Origin: Heliocidaris erythrogramma
Lineage: Eukaryota > Echinodermata > Echinoidea > Camarodonta > Echinometridae
Length of the DNA: 64,000 bases
Direction: 5' to 3'
NCBI GenBank assembly: GCA_025617745.1
Contig: CM046853.1
Location: forward strand, 10,618,974-10,682,973
Shown: positions 10,525-56,913 of the stretch, in pieces
Layout: every line of letters begins with the position of its first letter
Numbering within the stretch: position 1 is the stretch's first letter
Program-made: the position numbers and the translations under genes
The notes under the pieces: generated by a model
What the model saw: the letters and a program-made list of their open reading frames with translations, nothing else
Told to the model about the DNA's origin: nothing
The model's database searches: none

Positions 10525-12323
10525 ATGGAACTGAGGAAATTTTCCTGGCTTTTAGTTGCTATATTTGCCTTCATAGCCATCCTCCGGGTGAGTGCCGATG
10601 ATGACGAGGAGGAAGATGATGATGAGGAAGGTCGACACCATCACGTGGGGCACAGGATAACTCGACCACCGGTATCTTCATCTGGAAGAGAAGATGGAGT
10701 AGGAGGAGCTACTGAAATAGGTCACCATGGTCACGGAGGGAGGAAGCCCGGGAGGAAGCCCGGTAGGGGGAATAACGACGATGGAGATGATGAAGGAGAA
10801 GAGAGCGAGGAAGATGATGAAGATGAGTCTGAAGGGGGCAAAGACCACTCAGGCGAAGGAGGTGGTGGAACAGGGACTGGAGGAGGAACCGGAGGAGGTG
10901 GTGGTGGTGGTGGTGGAGGAGGAGGAGGGGGAGGAAATGGGGGCACCGGAGGAGAAAGCGGTGGTGGTGGTGGTGGTGGTAATGCAGGTGGAGGAGGAAC
11001 AGGAGGTACCGTTGGTGGGGGAGGTGGTGGGGTAGGACCAGATGGAGGAACAGGAGGCAGTGGAAATGGTGGAGGAGGTGGGGGAACTGGCGGATCTGGA
11101 GGAGGAGCAGGAGCCGGAGGAGGCAGTGGCGCGGGAAGTGGAGAAGCAGGTGGAAATGGTGGAGGAACAGGACCAGGGGAAGGGGGTGCAGGAGGGGCAG
11201 GAGGAGAGGGAGGAGGAGGAGGCGGCGGCACAGCTGACAGCGGCACTGGTGGAGGAGTTGGTGGCGAAGGAGGAGGTGGAGGTGGAAGTGGAGGCGGAGG
11301 CACTGGTGGAACTGGAGGTGGGGGAGATGGTGCTGGTGGAAGTAGCGGTGGTGGAGGTGCCGGTGCTGGTGGTGGAAGTGGTGGTGGTACTGGTACAGCA
11401 GGAGGATCAGGAGGGGGACAAGGTGGATCTGATGGTACAGGACCTGGCACATCAGGTAAATTGTGAATCTTTGAAATTCGATCCAAACCATAATTTAAAA
11501 CAAAGAATAGAATAATGCATGAATTGAACCGAGTGCTTGTTTATCTTTATGCACTTTATGCACGTTTTAAATTATGGGTTGAATCGAAATAACGATGAGA
11601 CTGTCATTTTCACACTATTGCTCTAAATCAATTATTTGCGAGCTATGACTCCACATCCGTCGTATCATGTCTTACTTTACACTGACCGACTCCAAGGAGG
11701 GATGTGGGAGGCACAACCGGGTCTTGCAGTCACACAAATATATTTTGTTTTTGCTTGTTAGAATTTTGTTCGTATTGTGTCCCCCTCCCTCCCCCCCCCC
11801 CCCTTTGTTATTAGGAATCTTGTTACTATCACATAATTTTATCCAATTCAAAGCAGATCCAGGAACCACTGCTGGCCAGTCATCCGGAGGCCCATGGATA
11901 ACTACACCACCGATATCACATATCCCGAGGTCGACTACCGTACCGACAATAACGCCTTCGCCTACGGCACCTTTCTGTCCGTCATCATGCCCTGTCGTTC
12001 TCGACTTCGTATGTGGGTCTGATGGCCAGACCTATGCCAACGAGTGCGTGCTTAGTGTTGTCCGATGTACAACGGGCGACACCACACTCGAAGTCATGTA
12101 CAGAGGCGAATGCCAAGTCCAGCCACTGACCTTCTCGAATCCATTTCAGTCCTGGGGGAGCAGGGAGACTGGTCTACCACAGGATGAAATTCCTTTACCA
12201 TTGTCGGCACCGTCAGCGTCGTCTAAAATGAAACCGATCTTGAATATTAAGGATGCATTAAGGTATTGGAGAGACATGAGGAGAACAACTAGGTCGAGCT
12301 TTCAAGAAAATTCAACTCGCTGA
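10525..12323 (+). CDS. Secreted acidic, glycine-rich protein with a C-terminal Kazal domain
   Basis: Two exons, 10525-11455 and 11857-12323, join in phase 1 (donor CAG|GTAAAT, acceptor CAAAGCAG|AT) to give 465 aa. The ATG at 10525 is chosen because it starts a clean signal peptide (KFSWLLVAIFAFIAILRVSA) followed at once by DDDEEEDDDEEG. An in-frame ATG at 10447 would only add a second hydrophobic stretch. In order: the acidic run; RHHHVGHR; a basic RKPGRKPGR; a second Asp/Glu/Ser segment; about 190 residues of mostly Gly with Thr, Ser and Ala; a Thr/Pro linker; then a Kazal domain at about 351-396 with six Cys and the core CGSDGQTYANEC. AATAAA lies just after the stop (about 12328). Kazal domains usually inhibit serine proteases or act as extracellular modules. 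The composition suggests an extracellular-matrix, mineral- or metal-binding protein; that role is inference. No family name is recognised. Confidence 0.8.
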
Positions 12324-17879: not shown

Positions 17880-18690
17880 AGGAGCAATCTGGATTGAACA
17901 GGTTGATCAATACTACAAAGAAAGAAGATATCTGGATTGAACAGGTTGATCAATACTAGAAAGACAGGAGTAATCTGGATTGAACAGGTTGATCAATTAC
18001 TAGAAAGAGAGAAGTAATCTGGATTGAACTGGTTGATCAATACTAGAAAGACAGGAGTAATATGATTTTTAAAAAGTTGATCAAACCAGGAAAGAAGGCA
18101 ATCTGATTTGAATAAAATGACCAAACTAGAAAGACAGGAGTAATCTGGATTGAACAGGTTGATCAATTACTAGAAAGAGAGAAGTAATCTGGATTGAACT
18201 GGTTGATCAATACTAGAAAGACAGGAGTAATCTGGATTAAATAAGTTGATCAAACCAGGAAAGAAGGCAATCTTATTTGAATAAAATGACCAAACTAGAA
18301 AGACAGGAGTAATCTAGATTGAACAGGTTGATCAATGCCAGAAAGAGAGAAGTAATCTGGACTGAACTGGTTGATCAATACTAGAAAGACAGGAGTAATC
18401 TGGATTAAATAAGTTGATCAAACCAGGAAAGAAGGCAATCTTATTTGAATAAAATGACCAAACTAGAAAGACAGGAGTAATCTAGATTGAACAGGTTGAT
18501 CAATACCAGAAAGAGAGAAGTAATCTGGACTGAACTGGTTGATCAATACTAGAAAGACAGGAGTAATCTGGATTAAATAAGGTGATCAAACCAGAAAAGA
18601 AGGCAATCTGATTTGAATAAAATGACCAAACTAGAAAGACAGGAAGAATATGGATTGAATAGACTGATCAAACCAGACAGACAAAATTAA
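17880..18690. repeat. Higher-order tandem satellite (about 43-bp monomers, about 169-bp units)
   Basis: Monomers of about 40-44 bp built on ATCTGGATTGAACAGGTTGA are tandemly arrayed. From about 17971 they are organised as four-monomer units. The same monomer type recurs at 17971, 18141, 18310, 18478 and, diverged, about 18646, giving periods of 170, 169, 168 and 168 bp. Monomers within a unit differ more than equivalent monomers between units, the mark of higher-order repeat amplification. It is a eukaryotic satellite; there are no unique spacers of CRISPR type. Confidence 0.9.
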
Positions 18691-19071: not shown

Positions 19072-19500
19072 TGATTTGTAAAACGAGAAGTATATTACCC
19101 TAACGTAAATATTTTTTCTTAGTTTTATGAGATGCATATATCTCATGGATACAAAGTATTCAAGTCATATCACCAACATCATATCAGATTCTTTTGGTAC
19201 AAAATGGATTTAGAATAGTACAAAACGCAACAATAAGTTGAAATGAAAGCTTTTAGGAAGACATATATTCAATGTATATCATTATATTATCATTTACACA
19301 TTCCACATAGAATAATCAATACAATGAAGGAGTGAACATGGCATAAAGAGTTACAAGACAATAAACAATAGAAAGAAGAAATTTGTCATAGAAATGACAG
19401 TATCATTTCAATTAATATTCAATTATTTTTAATTTCATTCATATCTTATAAAAATATCTGTTTCAGTCAGAGATAAACCACAATTGTTGGAACATGAAAA

Positions 19501-21548
19501 TCATGGAAAAACAGGGACTGACTCCATGGCCACACTCTCAATTCCACACTCATCAGTACCCCTCAAGATTCTAAAGTACCCTTCTTCACCCCATGATGCA
19601 CCCCAGCTATTCTTCACTGTCCAGAATTTCATTCCAGATGCTTCATCCACCCCATAACCAACCACCAGGACAGCATGGTTGGTCAGCTCAAACGGGTTGA
19701 ACTTCAGCATTGAGTTCTTGACCCCTGTGTGATAATACACGCCCCCTTTGTAGCCAAAAAAGTCATCGTAGACTTCAAAACCAACGGCGATGGGTCCGTT
19801 CTTGACCAGAGCAGAGCGCATGAGTTCTTCGTTGCATGCTCCATAGAAACCCCCAATGTAGTGGTAGTCAGTAGCATAGTAACGGCGGCATCCCTTCTGC
19901 TCCTTACTGCATTTCGAGTCGACTCCTAGATAGGGGTAACAAGACTCCTCCACCAACCCAAAATCCTCAGCATACTTACCAGCCACTAGATAGGCAAACC
20001 CTCCATCACATCCTGTAGAAAAATCACATTCTTGAGACTATAACATTGAAAGAACAGCAAATTCAATTGGCAAAAATGTATATATCAAGACATAATGTAT
20101 TTCTTATACTGGATTTGATAATTGATAATTTAATTTCACATTAATTTTGTTATTTTGACAGTGAAAATCATTCGGCCACAGAGTTTGGACTTCCAAGTCT
20201 CATCTTCAAACAAGATGAATGCGACTGCGTCTCCTATATGCCTCCGCCTAAATTCAGTTGATGGCTCAAATAGTGTGATAACCAGAAGTAAAAAGCCTAC
20301 AATTACATGTTAATTGACCTCCTTGACATTATTTTGACCTCACAACTTATAATCCCAAAGTATGATCACTTTTTCTTGTCCTAGTCATGAATACAACATA
20401 GTTGAGATATGGTGATATCAAAGCTAAAAACACATTAATTTCACTTATAATGACCTCAGTCTGTGACCTGTCACCTTTGACCTACATGAACAAAAATCTC
20501 ATCAGTTTGTTCTCACTATGGTGATGCATACTAGTACCAAGTTTGAAGTAGATGGATATTACCTGCAATTTCAGAATTGACCTCTATGACCTTTGACCTT
20601 TGAACTACATAAGCCCAAAATCTAATTAGATTGTCTTTCTATGGTGATACATATTAGAGCCAAGTTTGAAGTTAATACTTCAAACAAAATTTCAGAAATT
20701 GACCTGTGACCTTAGCCTTACGTACACTTTGATTTGATTAAAATCTAATCAGGTCGTCTTCTTATGGTGATATATACTAGCACTAAGTTTGAAGTTTAAA
20801 CCTCAAATGGTTCTTGAGATATCATGAGAATGAGGCCAACACCTGACATTTCCGAAATTGACCTCTGTGACCTATGACCTTTGACCTACGTACCCCAAAA
20901 TCTAATATGATCATCTTCCTATGGTGATACATACAAGCATCAAGTTTGAAGTTCATACCTCATGCTGTTCTTGAGTTATCGTGAGAACGAGAATGCAGGA
21001 CGGACAACCCGAAAACATAATGCCTGCGGCACCACCTTCGGCAGGCGGAGGCATAAAAAAGAAGACACTCAAGACAATCTGAAATATCTGATTTTGTTTT
21101 CACTAATGAATGAAAAATAATCACTTTATCACATCCTGTATAATCATTTGGCAAACTAGTGAAACTAGATATAGAGGTGTCTATTTAACCAAGCCTCGAA
21201 AGTATGACTCAAGATAACCAAATTTCATATAATTTTCCCTATCTAAAGGTAGATTGGTATCCAGGTAAGAATTTCTTTTGACATAAAAGTAAAAATTTAC
21301 CTTGTGAATATTCACTGCATGCCACCACATCCTGAGGTGCAAAAACTTTCTGGATGGTGTTGTTTGTTGCTATGCGCAGTCTTGCTTCCAGCATCGCCAG
21401 GGAAGCAAAGGAGAAACAGCTTCCACACTGTTCCTGGTTTCTGACAGGTGATACAAAATTCTGGCCATTGACATTCCTCCAGTCAAAAGAATCTGGCAGT
21501 GAGGATGCTGCCTTTGATGTCTCAAACGTGACAGGAGCAGGGTGTGGT
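19501..21548 (-). CDS. Second copy of the two catalytic exons of cathepsin C (alternative 3' cassette or partial duplicate)
   Basis: Two exons on the minus strand: 21548-21301 (248 bp) and 20012-19501 (512 bp, ending in TGA). They encode the mature papain-type peptidase part of dipeptidyl peptidase [13 protein letters not shown], the catalytic-Cys motif [23 protein letters not shown] (catalytic His) and [15 protein letters not shown] (catalytic Asn), ending VPVFP. Lengths and phases equal those of the last two exons of the complete gene at 25208-31034: phase 2 in (A|CCA), phase 1 between, donor CAAG|GTAAAT. No exclusion-domain exons, signal peptide or promoter are visible between 21.6 and 25.2 kb. 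The parsimonious reading is a tandem duplication of the terminal exon pair, usable by alternative splicing from exon 4 of the upstream gene. A separate partial gene or pseudogene is possible, but both frames are intact and catalytic residues conserved. The two cassettes look roughly three-quarters identical in protein. Confidence 0.85.
20205..21056. mobile_element. Inverted-end repeat element with internal tandem units and nuclear-receptor half-sites
   Basis: The ends carry ATGCCTCCGCC (left) and GGCGGAGGCAT (right). The interior has diverged units of about 123-157 bp, each with TATGGTGAT and AAGTTTGAAGT. The direct repeat TGACCTTTGACCT occurs exactly at 20587-20599 and 20875-20887, and with one change at 20471-20483. 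A short relative is at 60671-60885. It lies in the intron between the two exons of the second cathepsin C cassette. Confidence 0.75.
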
Positions 21549-22640
21549 CTATCCAAAAAAAAAGCAACAAGAAACAAACTATAATACATAAAACTTTCAT
21601 TTGTTGGGATGATCATATGTAGTTAAGCTTCTACCAACCTTAAAATTTAGTAGGTAAGCTTTCATGCACTCCTGTGGACTTTCTCTAGCCAAGTGATTTT
21701 TCATGCCAAGTGATTTTTTCAGTTTCATGCTGTCTGGGGCCTTGAGATCACTGGAGCGAAGATAGGTGATACATGGAAGCCTGTGTACTAAATTTTAAGG
21801 TTAGTAGAAGCTGAAACTACAGTACATGTTAGAAACAAGCTAAGATTTTTTCCTCATCACCTATAACCTTAAAGTACATCAGTCAATCAACTTCATACTG
21901 GCATATAAATTATCAAGAACAGAAGCTTGTACAAATAATACACCCATATTCATGAAATATATGTAATAATACTTGTAATGATATTAAATATTTTGTATTA
22001 TTTTGTGATATAATTACATAAAAGAATATTTACTAATTTCAAAACAAATTTCTACATGACAATTCCTTCTCCTTATCAACACTTCTTTAAAAATTGGTTT
22101 CATTAAATGCAATGAATTTTGAATCAAAATGCTACAAACCAGAATTCCATTGAGATATTTAATGCAAAATTTAGATACTGATATTCATGTAAATGTAACA
22201 TCTTAATTATTAAGGTCTGTTTAGCTCATTCTTAAATTGTTATATATGAATTCACATCAACTCTTACTCATCTCATCTTCATTTCTCTCTCTCTCTCTCT
22301 CTTTCTTCTCTACCCCCCTACTCTCTCCAGCCATCTTGTTTCAGTCCAGCAAAGGGCTCATAAATCATTCATGTCAGCCTATTGACAACTTATCAGAAAA
22401 AGAGCAGGATGACATACATGTTTATGTATAATGGGAGTTAGCAAGCCATCACAACTTATAACCGACTTATCCTCTCATCTGTATTTCGCTAAATTTATAC
22501 AAAATCTGCAAAAAAATAGCAAAGAAATACATCACAAAACATGCAATAGGTTCATTCATTAATTTCAATCAAGGTTGATTTATTTCCATATAAAAATATA
22601 CACACATATAAATGTTTAAATCATTTTATAAAAATTGCAC
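21549..22640. other. Non-coding stretch upstream of the second cathepsin C cassette
   Basis: I looked for 5' exons of a second cathepsin C gene here and saw none. The stretch includes a CT run near 22283-22301 and short inverted pieces around 21615-21800 (CTACCAACCTTAAAATTTAG mirrored by CTAAATTTTAAGGTTAGTAG). Confidence 0.5.
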
Positions 22641-22650
22641 GAATAAATCA

Positions 22651-22764
22651 ATTCTTCATTAACTTTCTTATTTCTCATCGGATTTTGCTCAAACGTTCAT
22701 TGATCTGTTTCTTTAATTTTTCTGCTTCTTTTAAAACCAAGTTGATATCAGGATGGACTTCCCT
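22651..22764. mobile_element. Right-end fragment of a TTAA MITE
   Basis: Sequence matching the right part of the element at 16832-17356 (CTTATTTCTCATCGGATTTTGC, then GATATCAGGATGGACTTCCCT) ends at TTAA (22765-22768). The left half is missing. A second TTAA element begins at the same TTAA. Confidence 0.65.
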
Positions 22765-22768
22765 TTAA

Positions 22769-23180
22769 CCCTTTCAAGACAATTGACCACATTTTGTGGT
22801 TTGGCTCAATAACTTTTGATTCAAAGCTCTGAAAAATATACCAGATGCACGAGTAGAAAGAGCAAAAATTTCTGCACACACTATGCCCATTTTTGTTGCA
22901 TGGCCATATTACGTTTGATGCCAGGAATTTAAAAATGTGAATAAGCTTTAAAATCCTTAAATTGGCAACACATTGAGAGGTTCAAAATCCTTGTTTTTTC
23001 AATCAAAATTGGCAATATTTTAACTTTTCGACAAAATTCCTAACCATGTACATGTAATTTCTTTTAAAAAACATTACACGTTATTAGAGCCATGTAGCAC
23101 TAAAAGAAAAATATTATTGACCAATTTGAAAAACAAAATGTTATCAATTTAGCCCTTAAATAATTCCTGTCTTGAAAGGG
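22769..23180. mobile_element. piggyBac-like MITE with perfect ends
   Basis: CCCTTTCAAGACA at the left and TGTCTTGAAAGGG at the right are perfect 13-bp inverted repeats, with TTAA outside both (22765-22768 and 23181-23184). The 412-bp interior is non-coding. CCC ends and TTAA fit piggyBac. Confidence 0.8.
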
Positions 23181-23184
23181 TTAA

Positions 23185-25207
23185 TAAATGTGTATAATAA
23201 CCTAATCCATTATAACCTCCTTTACAGTTGAATAATGACAGCTCCTATAAAAGCAAGAACAAAAAAAGGACTGTGCAGCAACATTCCTACGCCACATACT
23301 TTACCAAGTCTTACATCCTTCAATAGAATTAGATTACGGGTAGATTTACTCACCTGAAAGACAAATTATTCCATGTAACAATATCACCTACTACTTCTAC
23401 TGGAAGTGATCTATTTCAAAAGTATGAAAACCTGTTTGAATTTTATATTGATATTTATATTCCCTCAGGTAGCTGAGTATTACGATGTAAATCATTATTG
23501 ATAATTATTTTAGGAGGCCTTAACCCTTGAGCATCTATATCAACGTGTACCAATAACCTGAAAAAACAATTTGTGTACAGATAGAGTGTATCAAACCAAC
23601 CTCACAGCACTTTACCTGATCTCCTATGGGTTAAAGATTAAGGAGTATGAAGAAAATAAAGGAAAACATAAAACCCCTCACGTGGAATACAACTCCGACT
23701 TCGGTTCCGTACAGGCCCTCATTTGAGAGAGCATGTATGGGGGCATCGACTAGTCTAGTCACAAGTCACAGAATTGTTTAGTCAAGTGTATTCAAATTTG
23801 TAATAACTTTTTATTGAATTAACATTTGAAGCTCATACTTTCAATATAGTATAGCGACATGGAACCCCTAACATACGGTGCAAAATATTTTTGGGCGATT
23901 GGTACCCTTTAAGTGAAATGTTGAAATTCACTTACTGGAAGTTACTCGCCTAATATTTAATAAATCTCAGACTCCTAAGATTCAATCTCAATGTTAACTT
24001 TCATACTACATGTATATCCAGTTTGTAAACAGTTATTTCATTTCATTTCATTTCTTTCACTCTCTTTAAAAAAAACATCAAAATTTATACAATACATATT
24101 TCATAACTTATTGAAGATAAGAAGTGAGGGACTCATAAAAAGCCATGTAGGCTTGTCAAAGATGATTCCCTGAAAATATACATATAGTAATTGAAATTGA
24201 AACATTTTGAACAAGAAACATAGAATGAATATCTTAAACTACGGATAGGACAGATGGATTGAAAAAAGAAAGGGGAGAGGAGAGAAAATGTGATTTCAGA
24301 AGCAAACAATTTTTATACCTTTTACATATTAGCATTTCATATTCTTTGAATTTAATTGACCCTTATATAAACGTTTGAAATGTTGTAATGATTTACATTT
24401 TTTAATGGATTCAGGTAGATCGTTCCATACAAGTGGGCCGTGAAAAAATACAGTGTTTTTAGTAGTACAAGTTCGGTGCAAAGGAAGGTGAAAGTTTTGA
24501 GCAGATCTTGTATCATAATGATGTATTTTACAATTCTGAGTGAAATAATCTTTAAATGCCTTAAATCACTGTAAATCAAAAGTCAAGCCTCGTCCAATTA
24601 GCAAGTCTACTAGGGATAGCTAGTTCATTGAAATGATCTTGCAGCACTGTGAATCATCTTGCAATGAAAAATCCCTGCTGAATTAAAAAACAGTAGTTAA
24701 AAAGGTATTCTAAATACTAGGGATAGCTAGTTCATTGAAATGATCTTGCAGCACTGTGAATCATCTTGCAATGAAAAATCCCTGCTGTATTAAAAAACAG
24801 TAGTTAAAAAGGTATTCTAAATACTAAATCAAACTGGTAAATCCCTAAAGATACCACACACCATATTTAATTGCATAAGATACTCTACTTTTGGTGCCAC
24901 AGCCCATGAAAACTTATAGTGAGTAATGGAAAGAGTGGTTGAGGGAGTTTAGTGAGTAACAGTTTGTGAGATTTTAAACAGAGGTAAATTCAAACACAGT
25001 ACTCTTTCTATTACATTTTGAAGCATATTATGATCAAACATGAAAGTTTTATGGCATTTTTGAATACTTCCTAGTAAGTGAACTGCAATTTGAGAATTGT
25101 GAAAACCTCTAAGGAAAGATTTATATGGCATTTTTTTCATTATTTCATCAACATACATGTATAGCATAAGGCACAAGTCATACACGTACAGTAACTTGTG
25201 TAGTTAT
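23185..25207. other. Intergenic or intronic stretch between the cathepsin C cassettes
   Basis: No exon was seen. If the downstream cassette is spliced from exon 4, this is intronic. It contains the 107-bp tandem duplication at 24609-24822. No canonical AATAAA on the minus strand was noted close to the stop at 25208; variant TATAAA-type signals occur near 25110 and 24316. Confidence 0.4.
24609..24822. repeat. 107-bp tandem duplication
   Basis: The block beginning ACTAGGGATAGCTAGTTCAT is present twice head to tail (24609-24715 and 24716-24822) with only about one difference (CTGAATTAA versus CTGTATTAA). It is a very recent local duplication. Confidence 0.9.
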
Positions 25208-28200
25208 CTATGGATAAATGGGAAAGGCCTCAACTGCAATACTCTCAATACTGCATTCATCTGTTCCCCTTCTGATCCTAAAATAACCCTCTTCACCCCA
25301 ATCTTTACCCCAGCTGTTCTTCACAATCCAAAACTTCTCCCCCGACCCTGCCTCAATACCATAACCCACCACAAGCACAACGTGATTTGTAATCTCAAAT
25401 GGGTTGAACTTCAAGTTCTTATTCTTAATGCCAGTGTGGTGGTAGATACCACCACTATATTGCATGAAGTCACCATACACCATGAAACTAACTGCCAAGG
25501 GGCCATTCTTGACAAGTTGTGCTTGCATGAGTTCCTCATTACAGCCACCATAGAATCCACCGACATAGTTGTAGTTGGTAGCGTAATATCTTCTGCATCC
25601 TGACTTCTCTTTGGAGCATGATAAGTCCATTCCCTTGTATGGATAGCAAGACTCCTCTACAACTCCGAACTCCTCTGCGTACTTGCCAGCAACAAGATAG
25701 GGAAATCCCCCATTGCAACCTGAAAGTATTATCATAAATATAATACAAATATAGTACCTTTCATTTCATTTCAATTTGATTCTGGGATAGGGCATTCATC
25801 GCTATCATATGGCTCTCCTCGTAACTCTTCTACAATTCATTAATTTAATTTATAAATAAAACAATTTTGTAAAGAGAAGTTAATTCCGCCTATCAACAAA
25901 AACGAAGCATACAAGCTATCAGTATTAATCTATAAAAAGTCATCTTGTAAGCACTGAAGAATAACTTTTACAAATATCTAGAAAGTTATAAAAGAAATAG
26001 AATCTCTTAAATAATCAATCTTAACCCAAAATACTATGTTACAATGGATAATAAAATGAACAAAAGATGGATACTGTTAATGTGAAAGGTTTTAAACTTA
26101 AAAACAGTCAAAATAACTATACTGTTACTTATTAAAAATGAAGTACATCGTCTGAACCATGAATCCCATTATAATGGTATGGTCTCATTTCATAACCTTA
26201 AAACCCTTACCTTGAGAGTATTCGCTGCATGATACTACATCCTGGGTGGAGAAGACAAGCTGAATGCTGTTGTTGGTTGCTATGCGTAATCTAGACTCCA
26301 GCATGGCCAGAGAGCCAAATGCATAGCAGCTGCCACAAGAGGCCTGATTGCGGATAGGAGATACAAAGTTTTGTCCGTCCACGTCTCGCCAGTCAAACTC
26401 TAAAGGCAGTGAAGATGCTACCTTCTGGGCCTCATTGGTAGCAATTGCTGGTGTTGGTCTGGTGCAGATATGAATGTTATCTTGTCTTATGGGGTGTTGC
26501 AAGAAAGTTGCAATCAATTGCAAATTGTAAAGCAAATTAGAACAACCATTCTGAATGATTCTGGGTCTGCCCATTCAAGAAGATGCGCTTGCAACAATGA
26601 TTTTGATTGGTCAGTACCGATCAGTCGCAACTTGCAATCAATCAGAACTTTCTTGCAACACCCCATTACTTTCCCATTTTCAATTCATGTTGGTTTCTTT
26701 TCCTACAGCACGCAACTATTTTCCCCAAAACTGCACAACAGTAATTTACAATTTCTTCTTTACATCAGCCTCGTTATGGTTGAAGATTTTTTCTATTTTG
26801 GACAGTGGTCTACATTTGAAAATAAAGTGTTGTTTATCAAGGAAAGAACCATTAATCTCAACATACCTCTCAACAAACTTTAACAGGGAAATTCAACAGC
26901 AATTTGCTCACACACCTTTGTTTTGGATAAGTATGGAGACCCCAAATCTCCCACATAAATCTTGAAACAACACATATTTACAGAGACATCAATACTAACT
27001 AGACCATACAGAATAGAGGGGGGTTCAAGAAAGTAAGCATATAGTTTTACTTGGTGACTAAAAACCCGACATTTGCTGACACAAAATTTTGAATGGGGAG
27101 GGTGTCAACCCCCCCCCCCCCCCCCCACCCCCAGCAACCCCCTGTAGATTCAGCCTGAGATGGATAACTCTTTTGGACATTTACCTTAATGATCCTAAGC
27201 CATTCGTAGCACCTGCTCTCCTTCGCATATCTTCAACAGTGTACATCTCATGGTCAGGATAGACAGCTGCATGCCACGATTTCTGAGCTCTGTTGATCTG
27301 CTCTACCATCTTCTTATCATTCTGGTACATCATTTGGCTGAAGTCTGGATGCCTGTCAATTGAGAGAAAAACCTTGTAAGCAAAAATGGCAAATCATGCT
27401 TAAGTATCAATTTCCTTTGAGTGATCCTTATTCCTTATGCAAGTTAAGCACTTCAAAAACTGATTTTTGTTGTTGTTGTTGCAAATTTGCAGGTAACTCA
27501 ATTAGTATTAGTATTTGAGATTTTTTTAACAACTTTTAGTGTACAGCATTTTAAAGAAAAAAAAGCATTGAAAAACAAGAAATATCAGGCCTAAAAGATA
27601 TATATGCATGATCACAGATATTTCCTGCAATTAAGTCAAAAGAAATATGGTAGGCTTGTAGCTACATTGTACATGTTTGAAAATACAGGTAGTCGATTAC
27701 AATGCCTAAAATCACTTCTGTGATAGGTTCAAAACTTCATGACCTTTTTTCAGTCAAGATGGTAAGTGTGTTTCCTTCTTTACATTAACACTAATAGACC
27801 AGAATTCTAACAATATGATGAACTTATATTCCAGGGAAAGTAAGTATGAACAAGAAATATTTGAGAATCTTAACCCTTTGCCTACTGGAACTGGGAGGTC
27901 CATGTATTAAGCCTATAGGACTGAGAGAATTCAGTATTTAAAAGGATAGTTCACCCTGACAATAAGTTGGTTTTAATAAATGCAGAGAAACAAAAGAAAC
28001 ATATCAGTGAAGGTTTGGCGAAAATCTGTTAAAGAATTATGGAGTTATGGATTTTTAAAGTTTTGATTTTGTGACGTCACATGCGAGCAGCTCCCCCATG
28101 TGTCATGTGATATAAATTCCAGAAAATGACATTTTCTCAGAAAAATGGAAATGGTGTTACTTGTGCATTCAATATAACATCTTAAACATCATTTCATACC

Positions 28201-31034
28201 CACTCCTCTAAGAAAAATATCTTCAGTCATCATGAACCATTGAAAAATGGGAATTTATAGAATTTATATTACATGACGTATGGGGTAGCTGCTCGCATAC
28301 GACGTCACAAATTTAAACCTCAAAACACCCATAACTCTCTTATTCCTTGATGGATTTTTGTCAAACATTCACCAATATTTTTCTCTTATTTTTCTGCTTT
28401 TATTAAAACCAACTTATTGTCAGGGTGAACTATCCCTTTAATGGCTTAAAGACAGATGGAAGAAAACCTTTGCCAAACAATGCTACAAACAAGTCATTTA
28501 TTCCTTTAACCCTTGATGTGTAAATATATTTTTCCCCATAAACATGGATCTTTGAACACAAACACATTTATTTTCACGAAGATTTTGAGATTTTGTTGAC
28601 TATCTTTAATAATCATAAATACAAAGTAGCATGTATGCACAGCACCAGGGCATGCTAAATGACGGTAATAAAACATAGCATCCTTGGTAATATGATGACA
28701 GACTTTGAACCAATTCAGAATACGGAAATGGCACAGTGGAAACTGCAGGTTCATTTTTAGCTATAATATAAGTCACAATCAATCCAAAATATTATTTACA
28801 GCTAAAAGCCCATTTCTTTGTAACACAATATATTGATAATCATTTTGATTGCAACTTTCCTGTTTCTTCAAGCACATGTTAAAACACATCCATGCACAAT
28901 TCAGACACTTTCATTTAACTTGTGTTTAATAGTGTCTTTGAATTTATGCTATATGTTAGTGATGCTACTCATCTTACGTTTTCTCCCCAAGTTCTCCCTA
29001 AAATAACAATAATCTCCTTTGTAAAACTCTATACCTTTCTTTCTTGACAGTGTGCACCTTTGATGGACCCATCTTTCTACCTACATAACATGCCCAATCA
29101 GAACCCATCACGTTGTGTGACCAACCTGGTAAGGTCTGAGAACAATTCATGGTAACCTGGTGGGAAAGGTAATCAAAATGAATTAATACTATGATTGAAT
29201 TCACGAAATGGGATACATTTTCTGAAGAAAAAAATGGAGATGAAACGTGATAAATAAAAAGGGAGGAGAGAATTGAAGGTGCAAAAAGAATGCTGGGATA
29301 CATAAAACATATCAAATGGCTTTTAAAAAATCTATATACATGTATTAAAACTTTTCCTGATTTGTTGAATAATAAAACATTCAACACACTGGTTTAATGA
29401 ACTTTTCTCTTATGTAAGTTTCAAAAAAATTGACAGTTCTGATCATTAATAACTTAAAAGTTAAAATTCTTATCAGGCTGAATTTTAGATAATGTAAAAC
29501 TAAAGTATTTCAAATCTATTTGGTGTAAGTGTTTATAACATGTCCTTTAATACTATATATTGTTAAACGCTTAAAGCAGTGTTAATTTCATCTATTAGAC
29601 ATGGCCAACTCCAACACACCTGGCTTCCTTGTTGTGTATATTCTGAGAAAGCAAAGTACTTCCTATTGTTGAGCACAACCTCAAAACCTTGGTTGTAAAT
29701 CAGAGTCCAAAATCCCTTAGTACCATACTGGACATCTACTGCCACGTCTGGAAAAAGCAACTGCACATGCAACTTGTATGTTACATTACCTGTATAATGA
29801 TAAAGGACGGCATTTTATTAGGATATCTGATATCAAATAAATAGTTTGAACTTTGGAAAGTCTTCATTTGTTCAAAAATCAATCACCAAAGAGTGTTATA
29901 CTTTTGCTACAAATTTACAACTTGAAATTTAAAAAGACAGTTGTACAATAATCAAAGAGCAAATTACCTAAAAAAATCAGTGATACATATTAGCCAACTT
30001 TCTATAAATGGATAATACCCCTTTACAATAAGAATGGCATTCCACTATTTTTAGCAGCTGAATCTACCGTGCTCCTTGAATTTTCTGCTCTAATAGAAAA
30101 AAAGAAAATCATCTTCAAAAAGCTAGGCAAGCTAGTATAGATCTAATAAATAATAAATGTAAAAGATATTGGTTAATAACCACATTGTGTGATTCCATGC
30201 ATGCTGCCATTTGGATAAAAGGAACATAAACATTATCTTCAAGCAATCCCATTGCAAAACTTGCTACACAGTATCTTTTTTCACGAAGAAGAAATGATAA
30301 GCCAAGTCAATTTCTACTAAAGTACAACCAAGAGGACAGCACAAATATAACATGAATACAGAGATCAAAATTACATGGAAAAGTAAAAGTATACATACAT
30401 AAGATAAATTATGTCAAAGAAAAAATGAAAACAAATATAGATTACAGAACATAAATCCGAAATTATGTTTTTGTTTTGCTATCTTCATAAGATGATGATA
30501 CATCAAAATGTCATACATGTAGCTTAGTTTAAGGAAAGTTAGAGTGTAGGACAAATCACAAATAGCCCAATATAAAAAAGTAGCAAAACATAACTTAAGT
30601 ATTTTTAAAGTTATTTCATAACAGTTCTTCATCTATCTCTTTTCATTTCCAACAGCCCATGATATATACTATACTATTTGGCAATTTTCTTTCAATTTAA
30701 AATCTTGTCAGGAGATCTAATAGTATCTCCTTCTATAAAACTCATACTCATAGACAGTCGGACTATTTAATCTAGCTTTCTTTCCTTTTGTTTTACCATT
30801 CATTAACAGCATAATCCTAGATTCAATAATTTTATAAAATCACAATAAAGCTGTGTACGTACCTGGCTTTGTGCAATCAATTTTGTTGTCACCGCCATAA
30901 CCGCTGACCTCAAAAATCCACTCCCCCGCGACGTCTTCGTAAGTGCAGTTTGCCGGTGTATCACCAACCACAAATGCCGGCACGATTGCCAGTGCAAATA
31001 TCACAGCGCAAACCCTCTTGGTTTCCCCTGTCAT
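25208..31034 (-). CDS. CTSC: Cathepsin C (dipeptidyl peptidase I), complete six-exon gene
   Basis: Exons on the minus strand: 31034-30863, 29789-29620, 29156-29035, 27352-27185, 26458-26211, 25719-25208. All have GT-AG borders and matching phases, giving 463 aa, the same length as I recall for human CTSC. Exon 1 encodes a signal peptide ([17 protein letters not shown]) followed by [17 protein letters not shown], the start of the exclusion domain. Exons 2-3 continue that domain ([33 protein letters not shown]). Exon 4 is propeptide ([20 protein letters not shown]). Exon 5 starts the papain-fold domain with [12 protein letters not shown] (catalytic Cys). Exon 6 has [11 protein letters not shown] (His) and VKNSWG (Asn), ending FPIYP. 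Cathepsin C is a lysosomal exopeptidase removing N-terminal dipeptides and activating granule serine proteases. The gene is head-to-head with ARL8. A second copy of exons 5-6 lies downstream. Confidence 0.95.
26490..26665. mobile_element. Harbinger-like MITE beside the exon 5 splice acceptor
   Basis: Inverted ends TGGGGTGTTGCAAGAAAGTT and CTTTCTTGCAACACCCCA enclose 176 bp. The 3-bp repeat TTA flanks both sides (26487-26489 and 26666-26668), the target choice of PIF/Harbinger. On the minus (gene) strand the insertion ends only about 28 bp before the exon 5 acceptor of cathepsin C. Confidence 0.8.
27942..28437. mobile_element. TTAA-flanked MITE inserted in an older TTAA element
   Basis: Ends AAGGATAGTTCACCCTGACA and TGTCAGGGTGAACTATCCCT, each extended inward by AATAAGTTGGTTTTAAT and its complement, with TTAA outside (27938-27941 and 28438-28441). 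Nested inside is a second inverted pair around a GTGACGTCAC-like site. The flanking halves (about 27874-27937 and 28442-28451) together resemble the small element at 47908-47980. This copy therefore jumped into a TTAA of an older element. Confidence 0.8.
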
Positions 31035-37600: not shown

Positions 37601-40600
37601 CTACTAAAATGTCTAAACAACCTATTCAAATCCTTTTGGGGGACTTAAAGATTGTCGAAATTGTATAAATAGTGATATGAAAATGGATAAATTATCATTC
37701 ATTTACATTGCCAACATATTAGTCAACCTTAGTGGCTTCGCGGGGGACTTCCCGATGCTACGTCAAATCGCTCTAGCCAATCAGCTGTCAATTTTGGGGG
37801 GCGTTCCCAAATTAGTGAGTTTTTTGACCAATTTCTTGTTACTGGGCAATTTTTTTTCTGTAAAAATGTCAGAATTGTGTCATTGGACCTATGTACTACA
37901 TTTTTAGCCCCAATGTTGATTCTAATTGACTCGCCCTTTAAGTAAAGTCTTTGAAAAAATAACAAATGGTCGGCTGATACAATTTTTAGAATCAAACAAT
38001 ACCTTTTACCATCAATATGGATTTAGAAAAAAATATAGTACAAAACTATCATTGCTAAACATGTCTAACACTATTTTGAAATCGATGGATGAGGGTAGAG
38101 CTACACTTGGGATTTTTATTGACTTCAAAAAAGCTTTTGATACTATAGATCATAAGGTCTTGATACATAAACTCTCTCATTATGGTATACGGGGTCTTCC
38201 ACTGAAATGGTTTGAAGACTATCTAGAAGGCAGGTATCAATATGTTCAATGTGGAGAAATAATCTCCAGCAAAATGAAAATCAGATGCGGTGTTCCACAG
38301 GGGTCAGTTTTAGGAGTTAGGACCAACACTGTTTTTACTTTATATCAATGACTTACCGTCGGTTTCTAACTTTTTCAATTTCAGACTATTTGCAGACGAT
38401 TCTAACTTGTTTCACACATTTCCAGCAAATCAAAAGGAGATTGATGCCAATGAAATAAATATCAATATAAAGAAAATACACGAATGGTGCATTGCAAATA
38501 AGCTTACTATCAACTCTCTGAAGACAAAATTTATGTTAATTAGCAGCAGGAGGAGAAAAGTCACATTATCAGGTAGACTAGAAATAGGTGGAGAAGTAAA
38601 TTTTGAAGAGACTGATGAAGCAACTTTTGTAGGTATAACGATTGATAAACATTTGACTTGGCACAATCATATCCGAGCTATTAATTCATGTATACGGAAA
38701 AGAGTTGGAATTTTATTCCGCCTTCGACATGTTGTACCCAAATATTCATTGGTCTTATTATATAAGGCTTTTATAGAGCCACATCTAACCTATGGAATCG
38801 AGGTATGGGGGAGTACATACAAGAGTAGCTTAAATTGTATACTTTGCAGTCAAAAAATGGCAGTACGTGCCATCACATTTAGTCACTGGCGAGCTCATAC
38901 TCGCCCATTATTTCGAGAATTAAAGATCCTCAATGTGTTTGATATGCACTATTCATGTGTATGAACCTTCATGTATGACCTGGGTAATAACAACTTACCC
39001 CACTCTTTAATAAACTATTGTGATACAATACAGCACAATTATTTAACGAGACAAAAAACAGGTCGACAGGTACATTTACCAAAATTAAGGACTACCCAAG
39101 GACAATTTTCTCTTTCATTTTTAGGAAGTGATTTATGGAATAGAATACCAACTGATATTAAATTGAAATCATCCAGAAGTAGTTTTAGGAAATCATTAAA
39201 AGAACATCTTTTAAGTACAATGAAGTATAATGTTTTTCTCTCTATATACATGTACATGTACATGTACATGTAACACCATGCTATTTATGTATGTGGTTGT
39301 AATTGTTATCTTTGTAATGGAATTAATATCTTCTAAGTACTATGTAAATTTTGTAGAGGGGCCAGGCTCGACTAGCACTTGTGCTATTTTCTGGTCCCAT
39401 TTACCAGCTATTATCATTTAAGTTTCAATCCTGTAACAATATTTACTGTGTGACAAATCTTGTACACATGATGTTATTGTTGGTGAATAAATCAAATCAA
39501 ATCAAATCAAAAACACAGACTGTCATCCAGATGATCCAGTTCATTCTAACGGACTGAATGCATTCATTTGATTTTCTTTATAAGAATCCATTTTTCTTAT
39601 TACAATGTGAGTATTATTTTGTTATTTACATATAATGGTGTCATAGTCGAGTGGTTTAAACACTTGACTAGAGATGCAAAGGTCGTGGGTTCGAACCTCG
39701 GCACATCACTAATGTTCTTTGGCAAGACATTAATCTACATATGCCACTCTCAACTCAGGTGTTACATGGGTACCGGTAGGAAAGAATTCCTTGAATGCTG
39801 TGAGCACCGAATTCGGTAGCCTAGCTAGAGCCGGGGTAATATTGGAGCGCCTTGAGCACCTTATTCGTGGTGGATATGAGCACTATAAAAATACCCAATA
39901 TTATTATTATTATTATTATTATTATTACTCCCTTTGTACATTTAGTGAAAAGTCTTAGAGAGGAAAAAGAACACCAAAAATCCCGATTTGTTGACAGGAG
40001 TGGAAAGATAAAAATCTGACAAAGAATAGAAAAATATTAAAAAGTCAAGTAACTGATGTAAGTAAAACATGTAAATCAGGGCAGCTATAGGAGAAAATTT
40101 ACTCAGGATCAATGAAAAACCATATTTCACAATTTATTTCATGTACAAAGTACATGTACATGCATATAACAGAGGGTTATCCTTATAAGCACATTCTACA
40201 CATACAATGAGATGTGTGTCTCAATAGTGAATAGTGATCAATTTTCAAAAAATTTCACAAATCTTATTCTGTTCTGAGATGTTTACTGATCTGTTTGTCT
40301 GATTTTCTGCTTCTACTTGAGTGAAAAGTTTTGTTCCACTAAGGTTCACTGTAGAAGGGTTAATCCCCTTAAAAATGAATGTGCTGCCACACTATGCTTC
40401 TTTATATCCAGTCTTGTTTTAATTAGTTGTGTGTGCATGCCATGAGTAAGTGTCCACAACCATTATTATTGTAATGGTAGATGTATGAACCATTAATCAT
40501 AGCATGTAATATAACCATGAACTTCCTGTCTCCAATTTTCTCTACAGTCTGGACAATTTAATGAAGACATGATTCCCACAGTAGGTTTCAACATGAGGAA

Positions 40601-52052: not shown

Positions 52053-55000
52053 TTACAGCTTCCAGATTTCATCTCGTGATGAACGCTTTCTTCGGTTAAA
52101 GCTAAACAATAAGAGAGAAAACAAAAATAAATCTGAGTGAAAATAGCATTGACTGCAGGAGGAACATTATACAGAAAAATATAACAGAAGTTAGAAGCAA
52201 GTTAAGAATGAAATTCAAAATTCTGCTCACATATTTTCCACTTTGTTAAAGCTCGTACAAGTGAATAAAACAAAACTAACAAATTACATAACTTTTCAAA
52301 TTAAATGTGGAAGAGATTCAGAAAGATAAATCGGACTTCTGTGATTATCTTGCTAGACAATAGAATTGTTCAGAAATGAGAATGGTTATAAGAGTCTCCA
52401 AAGCACTGCAGCAAAGACAATATGGATGAAAACATATTCACTGAAATTGCTTGCAGAAGATGATGACCAACTCATTTTATGATTTGTGAAATATTCATGA
52501 TATTTTCTTACCACAAGACTGTTCAAAAGAAAATAAATTACTCATGAAGTATCTCAGAACATATATAACACCATTTCTCAAATGACATTTTTCAGGATTA
52601 AAAGATTATAAATTTATTTCTGGTCCAAAAAATAAGAAAATGTTCCAGATTTCTCATCTGTAGGTGATATTACCTCACAAGGTCTACATTATCAAGAGCC
52701 CACTGGTCTTGGTTTACCCCATCATGTCTGGGCTGCCACCACCTGAACCTGACACCAAGCCCCCTAGCCTCTGGGGGTAGATCATAAGACACCCTAGTAG
52801 GTTCACCATAGTCCCTAGGGGCGTGGCTCTGAATCAGATACCAGTGGATACCATTGTCGAGGGTGTACTGGAGGAGGACAGCTTTACTCCTGATGTTGGG
52901 GGAGGCATAGTTGATGTGGCAGGCGGTGTTGTTGGGATCTCGGCTACCAATCTGAAGCACAAAGCCAATCTCTCTGTTGAGAGGAAGAGAAAGACAGATA
53001 AAGGTACAGGACAGGGAAATAAAAACAGAGAATAGATTTCTATACAATACTTTTAAGAACATAATTCAATACTGAGGAACATGATATTATATGAGACAGG
53101 AATGAGATAGACACACGAAGGGCAAAATACAATCAAATATTAGATTTGAAAATATATATACACATATACAACTTTGCACCAGTGAGGATTAATATGTGTG
53201 TTATTACAGGTATAATATGTTTTAATAAACATATTCAATCATGTGGAAACAAGTAAAAGCCTTCTTTGCTATAATGGTCAAAAGAACTCAACCGTGAATT
53301 ATCACCCAGGGTGAAGTTCTTTAGAACCATTATAGCAAAGAATGCTTTTTATGGAAACTGATCGTTTTTTCCTTTCCATCACAGAATCTTGATATTTTTG
53401 GTTACTCATTAACAAAACTAAATTCCTCTTACACAATGAGTCTTGTATCCAGCTCTACTGTCACTGCCTGTCTGAGAGCACACCCACTGAAATACAGAGC
53501 CATGCCATGAGCATGGGGTGTCAGAGGACCACACCCATGACCTTCGCCCCCTCCGTTCACCTTACTCCAGGGGTCCATAGATGGAATGAGACCACGATCA
53601 ACACCATAGCGAAAGTATGTGGGCAGTGGCATGGATGGGGTACATGACTCTCCTGAATAAATTAACAGAAAATTTACAGAAAAAAAAAAAAGCATGTGAA
53701 AACTATATACACTTTTCTTACCATCATTATTCAACGCGAGCCGATAATATTATCTATCCAATACTTTGCAAGTGTGTTTTTATTATGACCTTATCTTCCT
53801 TGTACACCAAGATGATTAATCAAAAGCACCTACTGGGGATTACTCAAAATGGATACTTAAAAATGAACAAATAAATCTTGAGTGATATATCACTGTCAAA
53901 CAAACATATTGCACTAGATGATAGATTCCATATGGGGTAGCTACCACAAATGCATATCTGTTAATGTCAACTACCTGCATATCCTTGATCACAGACACAT
54001 GATGGGCCGTCGACACCCTCTACACATTGCCCATGTCCACTGCACATATCAGGGCATTTCTCTCCTATGTACACATCATCCACTGCCCAGGACGGAGCCA
54101 GACTAGACGCATCTTCTTGGATCCAACGGAACTGTGTGGAACTGAAAGTAAGAGGTCAAAGTAAAATCAATAAAAGTCAAATCAATTAACCAATGACTAA
54201 ATGGCTTAGGAAAAGATCTTTTGGACATGAACTTATAGGCTATATCCTTGGATTGACGAGAGAGAGAGAGAGAGTTCATAGAAATGGACAAAAGTTTGCC
54301 TGTCAAATATCTAGGTCAGTATAAGCTTTAATTAACCACATGTTATCCCTGTGCTGGTTACATACATGTAAATCATCAATATGGCACGAAAAAGAGACAT
54401 GATAACGAAGCTTTTCGACCTGCACTCATCAGGTTATCACGCAGGTATATAACAAATTACTTGAAATCAACTATATTATAATCGGTGAACCCGGACGCAA
54501 CCTAGACGCCGTAATTTCAGAACAATCGCAAAGCTTGGACGAACTCCTTTTGTCTGCACAGAAGAGGTTCATGCGATTGAATGTAAGCAGCTTCCAGAAA
54601 GCGTAAATGCGCTGAGCTTCTGGCCCGGGACATAATTGAGAATTGATCGTCGGCATAGCTTTGTGCGCAAGCTGGATTGTTCAGCAAGTGGAGACCAATC
54701 GCTGAATCGCATTTGGCTATCTTTGGTCTGTTAGCGTGCATTTCAGATTTGCAGGCACGGACGGGCTGCGTGCGCTGATTGGTTGTACGGTTCCGAATAG
54801 TCGAGGGGATGTGTTGTTTAATGCGATCAGCCAACCGCTGAGAAGTACGGCCCACATACCTGGCATCGCACCGGCACTGAAATTGGTAAATAACATTACT
54901 CAAGTGGGGGGTGGGTAGTACATCCTTGCTAGTTGACGGTAGCATCCTGTGTGTAGAAAACACAATGCGTGTCGAAACCGCGTAATAGCAACGTGACACT

Positions 55001-56877
55001 GCGTGTTTGATCTGACTGGCGTATTTGTCAGATACCTTACCCCTCCAGGGTAGTTTGAGGTACACGGGGCATTTGGCAGGTCCAAATCTGGTGTCAGATT
55101 TGGATTGTGCCTCCAGCGTCCGTGTTATGGTGCGAGATATAACATGCTCAGGGTAACCATTGTCAAGGAGAATAGTTTTGATTTTCGCGACTTCGGGAGC
55201 TAATTTGCACGCAGAGCAAATCCTAAGGGCGCAGCACACTAAGTTTCTAATGAGCCCAATCTTGTATGAAGTTGCACTGTACGAGTCCCATCTCGTGTAT
55301 TGCCCGGTGAATGTGGGCTTGCGGTAGACGGAAGTGATGAATTTCCCATCACTTCTCTCCACGAGAACGTCGAGAAATGGGAGCGCATTGGACAGTTCAA
55401 TTTCACATGTGAATTTTAGCGCGGGATGGAGCCGGTTCAGTTGTGTAAGGAAAGCCTCACACGCTGCGCGGTTATCAAAAATTGCAAAAACTGTGCAGAC
55501 AAAAGGAGTTCGTCCAAGCTTTGCGATTGTTCTGAAATTACGGCGTCTAGGTTGGGTCCGGGTTCACCGATTATAATATAGTTGATTTCAAGTAATTTGT
55601 TATATACCTGCGTGATAACCTGATGAGTGCAGGTCGAAAAGCTTCGTTATCATGTCTCTTTTTCGTGCCATATTGAAATTTTGCAGTACCAAGAAATTAT
55701 TTATGTAAATCATCCTTAAAATAATGAAAGTTGTCCAAGAAATATTGCAGGAGTTCTCTGCATTTAAAAGCACTACACTAATCCACTGATCCAGATATCA
55801 TGGGAAATAAAGAGCCTGAGAGTAACAAATATCATTTACCCAGATACTGTATCACTTGGAAGCTCCATCGTAACAGTCTGCCATTGATGATACTCATTCT
55901 CTGAGTACGAGCTGCTGTCATGGTAACCAAACGGATCGCATCTCACATCCTCTTCATCTCCTGGGAGACAGGCTGGTTTGAGGACCGTCCACTGACCTTG
56001 GCTAGGATCAGTGGTGTACTCCAGGATTACAGGATACTCTAGGTTACAAGATGGGGTGCTCTGACATCCAACTACAATCTAGATGGAAGTGGGGAAAGAG
56101 AACATGAAGATTGACTGATAACACAAAGATTGACTGATAACACAAAGAGACCAATCAGTGGAAGAAAAACTTTCAGATATATAAAAAAAAAACCCCAGAC
56201 ATTTCCACTTTATTATAAAAGGGGGTATGCAATGTAATTTAAGAAAGGGGATTTCATGGCAAACATAGGCTAAGATTTAATTGCAAGAAATAATATTTTT
56301 ACTTATATGCTTTTAATGCACAAATTCCTACATAAATCAGTGACATGATGCAGATCTTTTTTTTTCACTTCCTCTATCACAGACAAATATAGTGCAATAT
56401 AATCGGGATCGTAACAAATTTACTGTACTTGCCTTAAACTGTATCATGTAATTCTTGTCCACTATGAGTTGTCTGGTGATGGCTGCACTGTCAAAAGCTG
56501 CATTCCTTTCATTTGCCCAGAAGAGGGCAGTGTTACGCTGACGACAAACTTCTTGCTGTCTCTGTCCATAGGGGTAAAACTCCCACATCACGCTTTGATG
56601 ATGTCCATGTTCAAATGACTCAGACAATGAACTAGGATTGATCTCGGAACCACCTAATTATAATAACATAGAACAGAAGTATGAAAGAGAGGATAGCCAA
56701 TGTTGTTGAGATCACAATACTATACCCCGAGCACTTCACACAAATAGCAATGATTTATGTAAATAATACTTATTGTTGATGGAATTTAGAAGCAGAAAAA
56801 GATGATAATGATGATAACAATGAATCTGATTATGATGATAATGATGATGGGTGTAATGATGATGGGTGTGATGATGA

Positions 56878-56913
<36 letters not shown>

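What the first reader, a model, noticed from the sequence alone, without database searches (positions are those of the whole stretch)
19501..27352. Cathepsin C with two tandem, phase-matched catalytic exon cassettes
Seen: exons 5 and 6 (26458-26211, 25719-25208) and a downstream pair (21548-21301, 20012-19501) have identical lengths (248 and 512 bp) and identical phases. Both pairs keep the catalytic Cys, His and Asn. No second exclusion-domain exon set is visible. By phase, exon 4 can join either exon 5, and exon 5 can join either exon 6, so up to three enzymes could share one signal peptide and exclusion domain. Sequence near the catalytic Cys differs (SCYAFGS versus SCFSFAS), which could change substrate preference. 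Interpreting this as alternative splicing is inference.
Basis: partly seen in the sequence, partly recalled or inferred. Interest (0 to 1): 0.8.

Follow-up and report, generated by a model that had tools for sequence, protein, structure and literature searches.

The report
Cathepsin C with swappable catalytic cassettes
A sea urchin gene for the protein-trimming enzyme cathepsin C carries two intact, long-diverged versions of its catalytic half behind a single front half, so one gene could build enzymes with different active-site pockets by choosing which version to splice in; no RNA was available to prove it.

Summary
The minus strand holds a cathepsin C (DPPI) gene: exons 1-4 (31034-27185), then two catalytic cassettes, 5a/6a and 5b/6b, of 248 and 512 bp each with identical phases. 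Exons 1-4 joined to either cassette give an open 463-aa DPPI; 5a->6b is also open, 5a->5b is not. The cassettes are 73% identical in protein. Synonymous sites are saturated (pS 0.81, dN 0.21), rates are equal (20 v 19 changes), and there are no inner stops, so both have long been under selection.

In the genome assembly (1.06 Gb; bindin hit, so a sea urchin) the searches found three catalytic cassettes but only two exclusion-domain sets: this one and a separate CTSC gene on contig C4. Cassette b thus has no recognisable 5' set of its own. Best reading: alternative 3'-terminal cassettes chosen by splicing and polyadenylation, giving at least two DPPIs with one exclusion domain and different substrate pockets (5 of 7 chosen wall residues differ). 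Alternative splicing is inferred, not shown. The architecture has precedents (Drosophila CG1637, oyster AOX); the listed results of my literature searches showed no protease catalytic domain swapped this way.

The parts
30863..31034 (-). exon 1 (172 nt): Met, signal peptide, Asp1 and start of exclusion domain
   Evidence: tblastn of DPPI residues 1-34 (3pdf_A), E 3.8e-7; CathepsinC_exc 1.1e-42 for the spliced protein
29620..29789 (-). exon 2 (170 nt): exclusion domain
29035..29156 (-). exon 3 (122 nt): end of exclusion domain, start of propeptide
   Evidence: CathepsinC_exc
27185..27352 (-). exon 4 (168 nt): propeptide; phase-2 donor AAG|GTAAAT that fits both 5a and 5b
26211..26458 (-). exon 5a (248 nt): C-terminal propeptide and heavy chain with catalytic Cys
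25208..25719 (-). exon 6a (512 nt): rest of heavy chain and light chain, His, Asn, stop TAG
21549..25207 (-). 3.66-kb stretch between cassettes: by inference 3' UTR of isoform A, then intron of isoform B; no CTSC-like exon detected; first ATTAAA at 24871
21301..21548 (-). exon 5b (248 nt): second heavy-chain cassette with catalytic Cys
19501..20012 (-). exon 6b (512 nt): second heavy/light-chain cassette, His, Asn, stop TGA; ATTAAA at 19433

Best explanation
One cathepsin C (DPPI) gene with a single 5' half (signal peptide, exclusion domain, most of the propeptide; exons 1-4) and two ancient, tandemly duplicated 3'-terminal catalytic cassettes. The exon 4 donor is spliced either to 5a (then 6a, stop and poly(A)) or past that cassette to 5b (then 6b, stop and poly(A)). 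This yields two full-length zymogens with the same exclusion domain and different catalytic domains; 5a->6b could give a chimera. Both would be chloride-dependent dipeptidyl peptidases, but B has a wider substrate pocket. Shown: exon anatomy, frames, intact catalytic residues, purifying selection on both cassettes, no other 5' set for b detected. Inferred: the splicing, the poly(A) choice, the change in specificity.
For: Open 463-aa products with either cassette and matched splice phases. Only one set of exons 1-4 found in the window. In the whole genome, exclusion-domain and exon 1-4 hits only here and in the C4 gene, against three catalytic cassettes. pS 0.81 v pN 0.18; relative-rate test 20 v 19 (3pdf_A as outgroup) and 17 v 18 (1jqp_A); a 252-codon frame left neutral stays open in 0.24% of 5000 simulations at d 0.2 and in 0 at d 0.5. 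A and B are sisters, 87 of 100 bootstraps, apart from C4. B keeps Phe278, Tyr323, Cys331 and the RPxPAP propeptide end. At the published dimer-contact positions (PMC6801622, Table 1), A and B agree in 9 of 9 in the mature catalytic domain (P 0.059) and in 3 of 5 in the propeptide. The WebScipio criteria (length, splice pattern and frame, similarity) are met.
Against: No RNA evidence. [quoted passage not shown] Poly(A) motifs after 6a are not better than chance (8 AATAAA/ATTAAA in 3.66 kb). A possible in-frame internal start lies just before 5b. No clear intron similarity or regulatory element is shared by the cassettes. The pocket enrichment fades when the invariant contacts are counted too (5 of 9, P 0.058; 5 of 13, P 0.24). 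9 of 11 exclusion-domain positions of the human dimer contacts differ in the urchin, so contact arguments are weak.
Confidence: 0.75

Rival explanations
1. Cassette b is a separate transcript from a promoter in the 25.2-21.5 kb stretch, starting just before exon 5b and lacking the exclusion domain: a secreted or lysosomal papain-like endopeptidase.
For: Without splicing, the frame upstream of 5b is open and holds Met codons followed by a hydrophobic run of signal-peptide type. The literature reports that DPPI without its exclusion domain is a monomeric endopeptidase (PMC8836896, introduction).
Against: The hydrophobic run is largely the polypyrimidine tract of a good acceptor; 60 of 2151 acceptor-like AG x phase cases in the window give such a pattern. 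The bases before both Met codons lack a purine at -3 (read; Kozak rule recalled). It would lack most of the propeptide. Cassette b keeps Phe278, Tyr323 and Cys331. A homology-free scan for a spliced first exon found none (0 candidates, shuffles 0.0 on average; the true exon 1 region gave 1).
Confidence: 0.1
2. Two tandem genes: cassette b has its own 5' exons that are too diverged, too short or missing from the assembly to be recognised.
For: Clusters of several duplicated exons are often tandem gene duplicates (PMC3228551), and first exons can diverge far (CG14502 example).
Against: The two mammalian DPPI sequences detect exons 1-4 here at E about 1e-5 or better, so a paralogous set of cassette-like divergence should be plain; none was found in the window (no N) or in the genome except C4 (only best candidates are scored there).
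Confidence: 0.08
3. The b cassette is joined to exons 1-4 by trans-splicing between separate pre-mRNAs, as reported for homologous 3' exon groups in Drosophila CG1637.
For: Same architecture: common 5' exon, homologous sets of 3' exons (PMC3228551).
Against: Needs a promoter for b and trans-splicing, which I do not recall being reported for sea urchins (no search made). Cis skipping over a total intron of 5.6 kb is simpler.
Confidence: 0.03
4. Cassette b is a non-functional relic of a partial duplication.
For: It lacks its own 5' half.
Against: Saturated synonymous sites with dN 0.21, no stop or frameshift in 252 codons, intact splice sites, rate equal to cassette a.
Confidence: 0.02

Closest known systems
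Cathepsin C / dipeptidyl peptidase I (MEROPS C01.070), mammalian
   Same: Domain order, Asp1, Gln228, Cys234, Phe278, Tyr323, Cys331, His381, Asn403, Trp405
   Different: Two catalytic cassettes behind one exclusion domain. PMC8836896 (parts 1-2 of 5 and passages read) reports a single DPPI in vertebrates and paralogs in some invertebrates, two in Strongylocentrotus purpuratus; the word isoform does not occur in it.
[quoted passage not shown]
   Same: Shared 5' part and homologous multi-exon 3' groups
   Different: That gene is described as trans-spliced; here two exons per group and four shared exons, and no RNA evidence
Oyster Crassostrea virginica AOX, duplicated terminal exon 10 (PMC5589949, abstract and discussion)
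   Same: Tandem duplicated terminal coding exon of the same coding length, alternative 3' splicing, old divergence, novel residues around functional sites in one copy
   Different: Single exon, not a two-exon whole catalytic domain; two mRNAs are known there
Human tandem duplicated exon substitutions (PMC9741552, passages)
   Same: 77 of 236 human events swap a C-terminal region; most are ancient
   Different: Those regions hold 14% of residues but 10.7% of predicted functional residues, and one event only (DUSP13) covers a whole protein; here the entire catalytic domain is swapped
C4 CTSC gene of the same genome (about G000:C4:20571355-20596587)
   Same: DPPI-like stretches in order from residue 1 to the end, with its own exclusion domain; the first stretches are weak (E 1.8e-4 and 0.017), and exon borders were not worked out in full
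   Different: 58-59% identical to A and B in the catalytic domain, different intron positions, one cassette found

Membership tests
Cathepsin C / DPPI | Exclusion domain with N-terminal Asp1 | tested here: met
   CathepsinC_exc E 1.1e-42; Asp1 aligned. For B only if spliced to exons 1-4
Cathepsin C / DPPI | Catalytic Cys234-His381 with Gln228, Asn403, Trp405 | tested here: met
   both cassettes
Cathepsin C / DPPI | Chloride-site residues Phe278 and Tyr323 | tested here: met
   both cassettes; definition from PMC8836896
Cathepsin C / DPPI | Free Cys331 of the tetramer interface | tested here: met
   residue present in both cassettes
Cathepsin C / DPPI | Dipeptidyl peptidase activity, tetramer | not testable with these tools
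   needs protein
Alternative homologous 3'-terminal exon group | Equal length, same splice pattern and frame, sequence similarity | tested here: met
   248/248, 512/512, GT-AG, phases equal, 73% protein identity
Alternative homologous 3'-terminal exon group | No 5' exon set of its own for the second group | tested here: met
   none found by homology in the window or genome; an unspliced internal start is not excluded
Alternative homologous 3'-terminal exon group | Own poly(A) site for each group | tested here: inconclusive
   ATTAAA 67 nt after 6b and 336 nt after 6a, but such motifs are frequent here
Alternative homologous 3'-terminal exon group | Transcripts joining exon 4 to each group | not testable with these tools
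   no RNA data
Mutually exclusive exons, strict sense | Cluster flanked by further exons on both sides | tested here: not met
   both cassettes end in stop codons; definition in PMC3228551. It may work like them but is a terminal group

The most novel reading that the evidence does not exclude
One gene makes a combinatorial set of dipeptidyl peptidases. A, B and chimeric (5a-6b) subunits share one exclusion domain and agree at 9 of 9 dimer-contact positions of the mature catalytic domain, so they co-assemble into mixed tetramers whose active sites have different pockets, and splicing tunes the specificity of a single enzyme particle.
Probability: 0.2. Interest if true: 0.7.

Novelty: new variant of a known kind. 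Interest (0 to 1): 0.5.

Why it matters
Cathepsin C activates immune serine proteases in mammals, and its specificity is set by a pocket capped by the exclusion domain (PMC6801622, PMC8836896). A gene that keeps the cap fixed and swaps the whole catalytic domain is a natural experiment on how that pocket is tuned, and an unusual case of splicing that would replace the catalytic residues themselves. It also gives a clean prediction: A-B divergence is about 0.7 of the divergence from the mammalian enzyme (ML distance 0.41 v 0.54-0.58), so the pair should be shared by all sea urchins and perhaps other echinoderms.

Tried and rejected
Haplotype or assembly duplication: rejected, the cassettes are only 68% identical in DNA and synonymous sites are saturated. 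Recent gene conversion: no support, exons 5 and 6 are equally diverged. Hidden exclusion-domain exons in the 25.2-21.5 kb stretch: none by tblastn with two mammalian DPPIs and the window's own protein, nor by a scan for signal-peptide first exons. Intronic elements shared by the cassettes: only short matches (best 19 nt, E 0.006). Relatives in viral contigs: none. Pocket test: PMC8908036 (one passage, a docking study) names ten hydrophobic contacts; I left out Tyr64 (in the shared part), Cys234 and Trp405 (invariant) to get seven walls, 5 of 7 different, P 0.015; with the two invariant ones 5 of 9, P 0.058, with all 13 cassette-coded contacts 5 of 13, P 0.24. The choice is post hoc. Literature: searches show only their top rows (15 of 29, 10 of 11, 15 of 124, 2 of 2, 5 of 5, 12 of 56, 12 of 82, 0 of 0).
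Full report
Anatomy. On the minus strand I rebuilt a cathepsin C gene: exons 1 (31034-30863, 172 nt), 2 (29789-29620, 170), 3 (29156-29035, 122), 4 (27352-27185, 168), 5a (26458-26211, 248), 6a (25719-25208, 512), and the second pair 5b (21548-21301, 248) and 6b (20012-19501, 512). The introns have GT and AG at their ends. Exons 1-4 with 5a/6a or with 5b/6b give 463-aa proteins without inner stops; so do 5a-6b and 5b-6a, the last being out of genomic order; 5a-5b shifts the frame. Both products match CathepsinC_exc (shared part, E 1.1e-42) and Peptidase_C1 (8.3e-62 and 1.4e-59). The best solved relatives are dipeptidyl peptidase 1 entries 3pdf_A and 1jqp_A (E 1.7e-161 and 3.4e-156 for A; 1.2e-116 and 9.1e-116 for cassette b alone); I call them human and rat from memory.

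One 5' half. With those two sequences as queries, tblastn finds each of exons 1-4 once (best E per exon from 7e-10 to 9e-7), the two cassettes, and nothing else better than E 0.049 in the 64 kb. In the whole genome assembly (1,064,227,859 bases, 26 contigs) the exclusion-domain family is found only here and on contig C4 (4 matches), the protein of exons 1-4 only here and on C4 (5 matches), and the catalytic domain strongly only as a, b and C4 (6 of 11 matches at E <= 1e-5; the other 5 are at 3.7e-7 to 4.2e-6 with 37-54% identity). The genome search scores only its best candidates. The C4 locus looks like a complete second CTSC gene with its own exclusion domain and other intron positions; its first stretches are weak (E 1.8e-4 and 0.017 with A), its exon borders were not all worked out, and the family match there runs over one in-frame TAA, which the protein match does not include. 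A bindin match (E 2.1e-68) marks the genome as an echinoid; that bindin is typical of sea urchins is recalled.

Age and selection. The cassettes are 68% identical in DNA in both exons and 173 of 236 in protein. Over 252 codons pS is 0.812 (beyond correction) and pN 0.182. With 3pdf_A as outgroup 20 changes are private to A and 19 to B, with 1jqp_A 17 and 18. In 5000 neutral simulations a frame of this length stays open in 0.24% at 0.2 substitutions per site and never at 0.5. In an LG+G4 tree of the five catalytic domains A and B are sisters (87 of 100 bootstraps), apart from C4. ML distances are 0.41 for A-B and 0.54-0.58 to human, so under a rough clock the duplication is about 0.7 as old as the echinoid-mammal split.

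Pocket. Catalytic and DPPI residues (Gln228, Cys234, Phe278, Tyr323, Cys331, His381, Asn403, Trp405) are kept in A, B and C4. A docking study (PMC8908036, one passage read) lists ten hydrophobic contacts. Leaving out Tyr64 (shared part), Cys234 and Trp405 (invariant), five of the seven others differ between A and B: 235 Y/F, 279 P/A, 349 S/G, 382 V/A, 429 I/V, against 61 of 230 positions in the domain (hypergeometric P 0.015; 5 of 9 and P 0.058, or 5 of 13 and P 0.24, if the invariant contacts are counted). Four of the B residues (F235, A279, G349, V429) occur in none of human, rat, A or C4. Summed side-chain volumes of the seven are 980 (human), 1032 (A), 1032 (C4) and 897 (B) cubic angstroms (volumes recalled). 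I infer a wider S2 region in B; that 279, 382 and 429 line S2 is recalled from the papain family.

Interfaces. Table 1 of PMC6801622 gives dimer contacts of human proCatC. A and B agree in 9 of 9 of those positions in the mature catalytic domain (P 0.059) and in 3 of 5 in the propeptide; but 9 of 11 positions on the exclusion-domain side differ from human in this gene, so this is weak support for a common partner.

Mechanism. The simplest account is competition at the exon 4 donor. Splicing to 5a leads to 6a, stop and poly(A); skipping that cassette leads to 5b and 6b. Candidate ATTAAA signals lie 67 nt after the 6b stop and 336 nt after the 6a stop, but such motifs are frequent in this AT-rich DNA. 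A simple acceptor score places the 5b acceptor within the best 2.8% of AG sites and the 5a acceptor within the best 10.5% (recalled scoring rule). This step is inferred.

Rivals. An internal start just before 5b would give an exclusion-free enzyme: the unspliced frame there is open and runs Met...hydrophobic, a pattern seen in 60 of 2151 acceptor-like cases of the window. Removal of the exclusion domain is reported to give a monomeric endopeptidase (PMC8836896), so this is not absurd, but cassette b keeps Cys331 and the chloride residues, which such an enzyme would not obviously need. Separate tandem genes, trans-splicing and a relic are less likely (see rivals).

Known kinds. WebScipio's criteria for homologous alternative exons are met, but that paper counts terminal groups apart from true mutually exclusive exons and warns of tandem genes and trans-splicing (PMC3228551: abstract, passages and section 11). 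Its CG1637 example is the closest architecture I saw. The oyster AOX gene has a duplicated terminal exon with two known mRNAs (PMC5589949, abstract and discussion). In human, 77 of 236 tandem exon substitutions are C-terminal, and the swapped regions hold fewer predicted functional residues than their share (10.7% v 14%; PMC9741552, passages). For cathepsin C, the rows listed by full-text searches (tops of longer lists, titles and abstract starts only; one found no paper) showed no such case. The evolutionary survey of DPPI reports two paralogs in Strongylocentrotus purpuratus (PMC8836896, parts 1-2 of 5 and passages), which could correspond to the C1 and C4 genes or to the two isoforms. Public eukaryote gene annotation was not available here, so isoforms may already be annotated.

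Verdict. A real, ancient and selected two-cassette cathepsin C gene; alternative splicing of the cassettes is likely (0.75) but unproven.

Noticed in passing
21623-21815 and 26489-26666: A foldback sequence (arms of 44 and 39 nt, 84-85% complementary, about 100-nt loop) lies just upstream of the acceptor of each exon 5 copy; the two are unrelated in sequence. Could be chance insertions of foldback elements or could affect acceptor choice.
   Followed up: partly
about G000:C4:20571355-20596587 (L016-L018, L007, L009): A second, apparently complete CTSC gene with its own exclusion domain, different intron positions and a single catalytic cassette.
   Followed up: partly
G000:C10, 14230468 / 14279888 and 14902331 / 14952198 (L011, L013, L014, L015): Two pairs of weak papain-family hits in the same relative order and nearly the same spacing, about 670 kb apart: perhaps a segmental duplication or a retained haplotype.
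   Followed up: no
17900-18680: A long array of imperfect repeats (units around AGAAAGACAGGAGTAATCTGGATTGAACAGGTTGATCAA) downstream of the second cassette, seen by eye.
   Followed up: no
31674 onwards, + strand: A divergent gene seems to begin 640 bp from the CTSC start codon; its first exon resembles the small GTPase ARL8 (recalled resemblance, by eye).
   Followed up: no
52673-62238, - strand: Reelin subrepeat-B domains and EGF-like motifs in separate frames, suggesting a reelin-like gene.
   Followed up: no
2287-2694 and 37926-38961, + strand: Reverse transcriptase fragments of retroelements.
   Followed up: no
11649-12320 (+) and 54520-55563 (-): A Kazal-type inhibitor domain and a weak GIY-YIG domain.
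   Followed up: no
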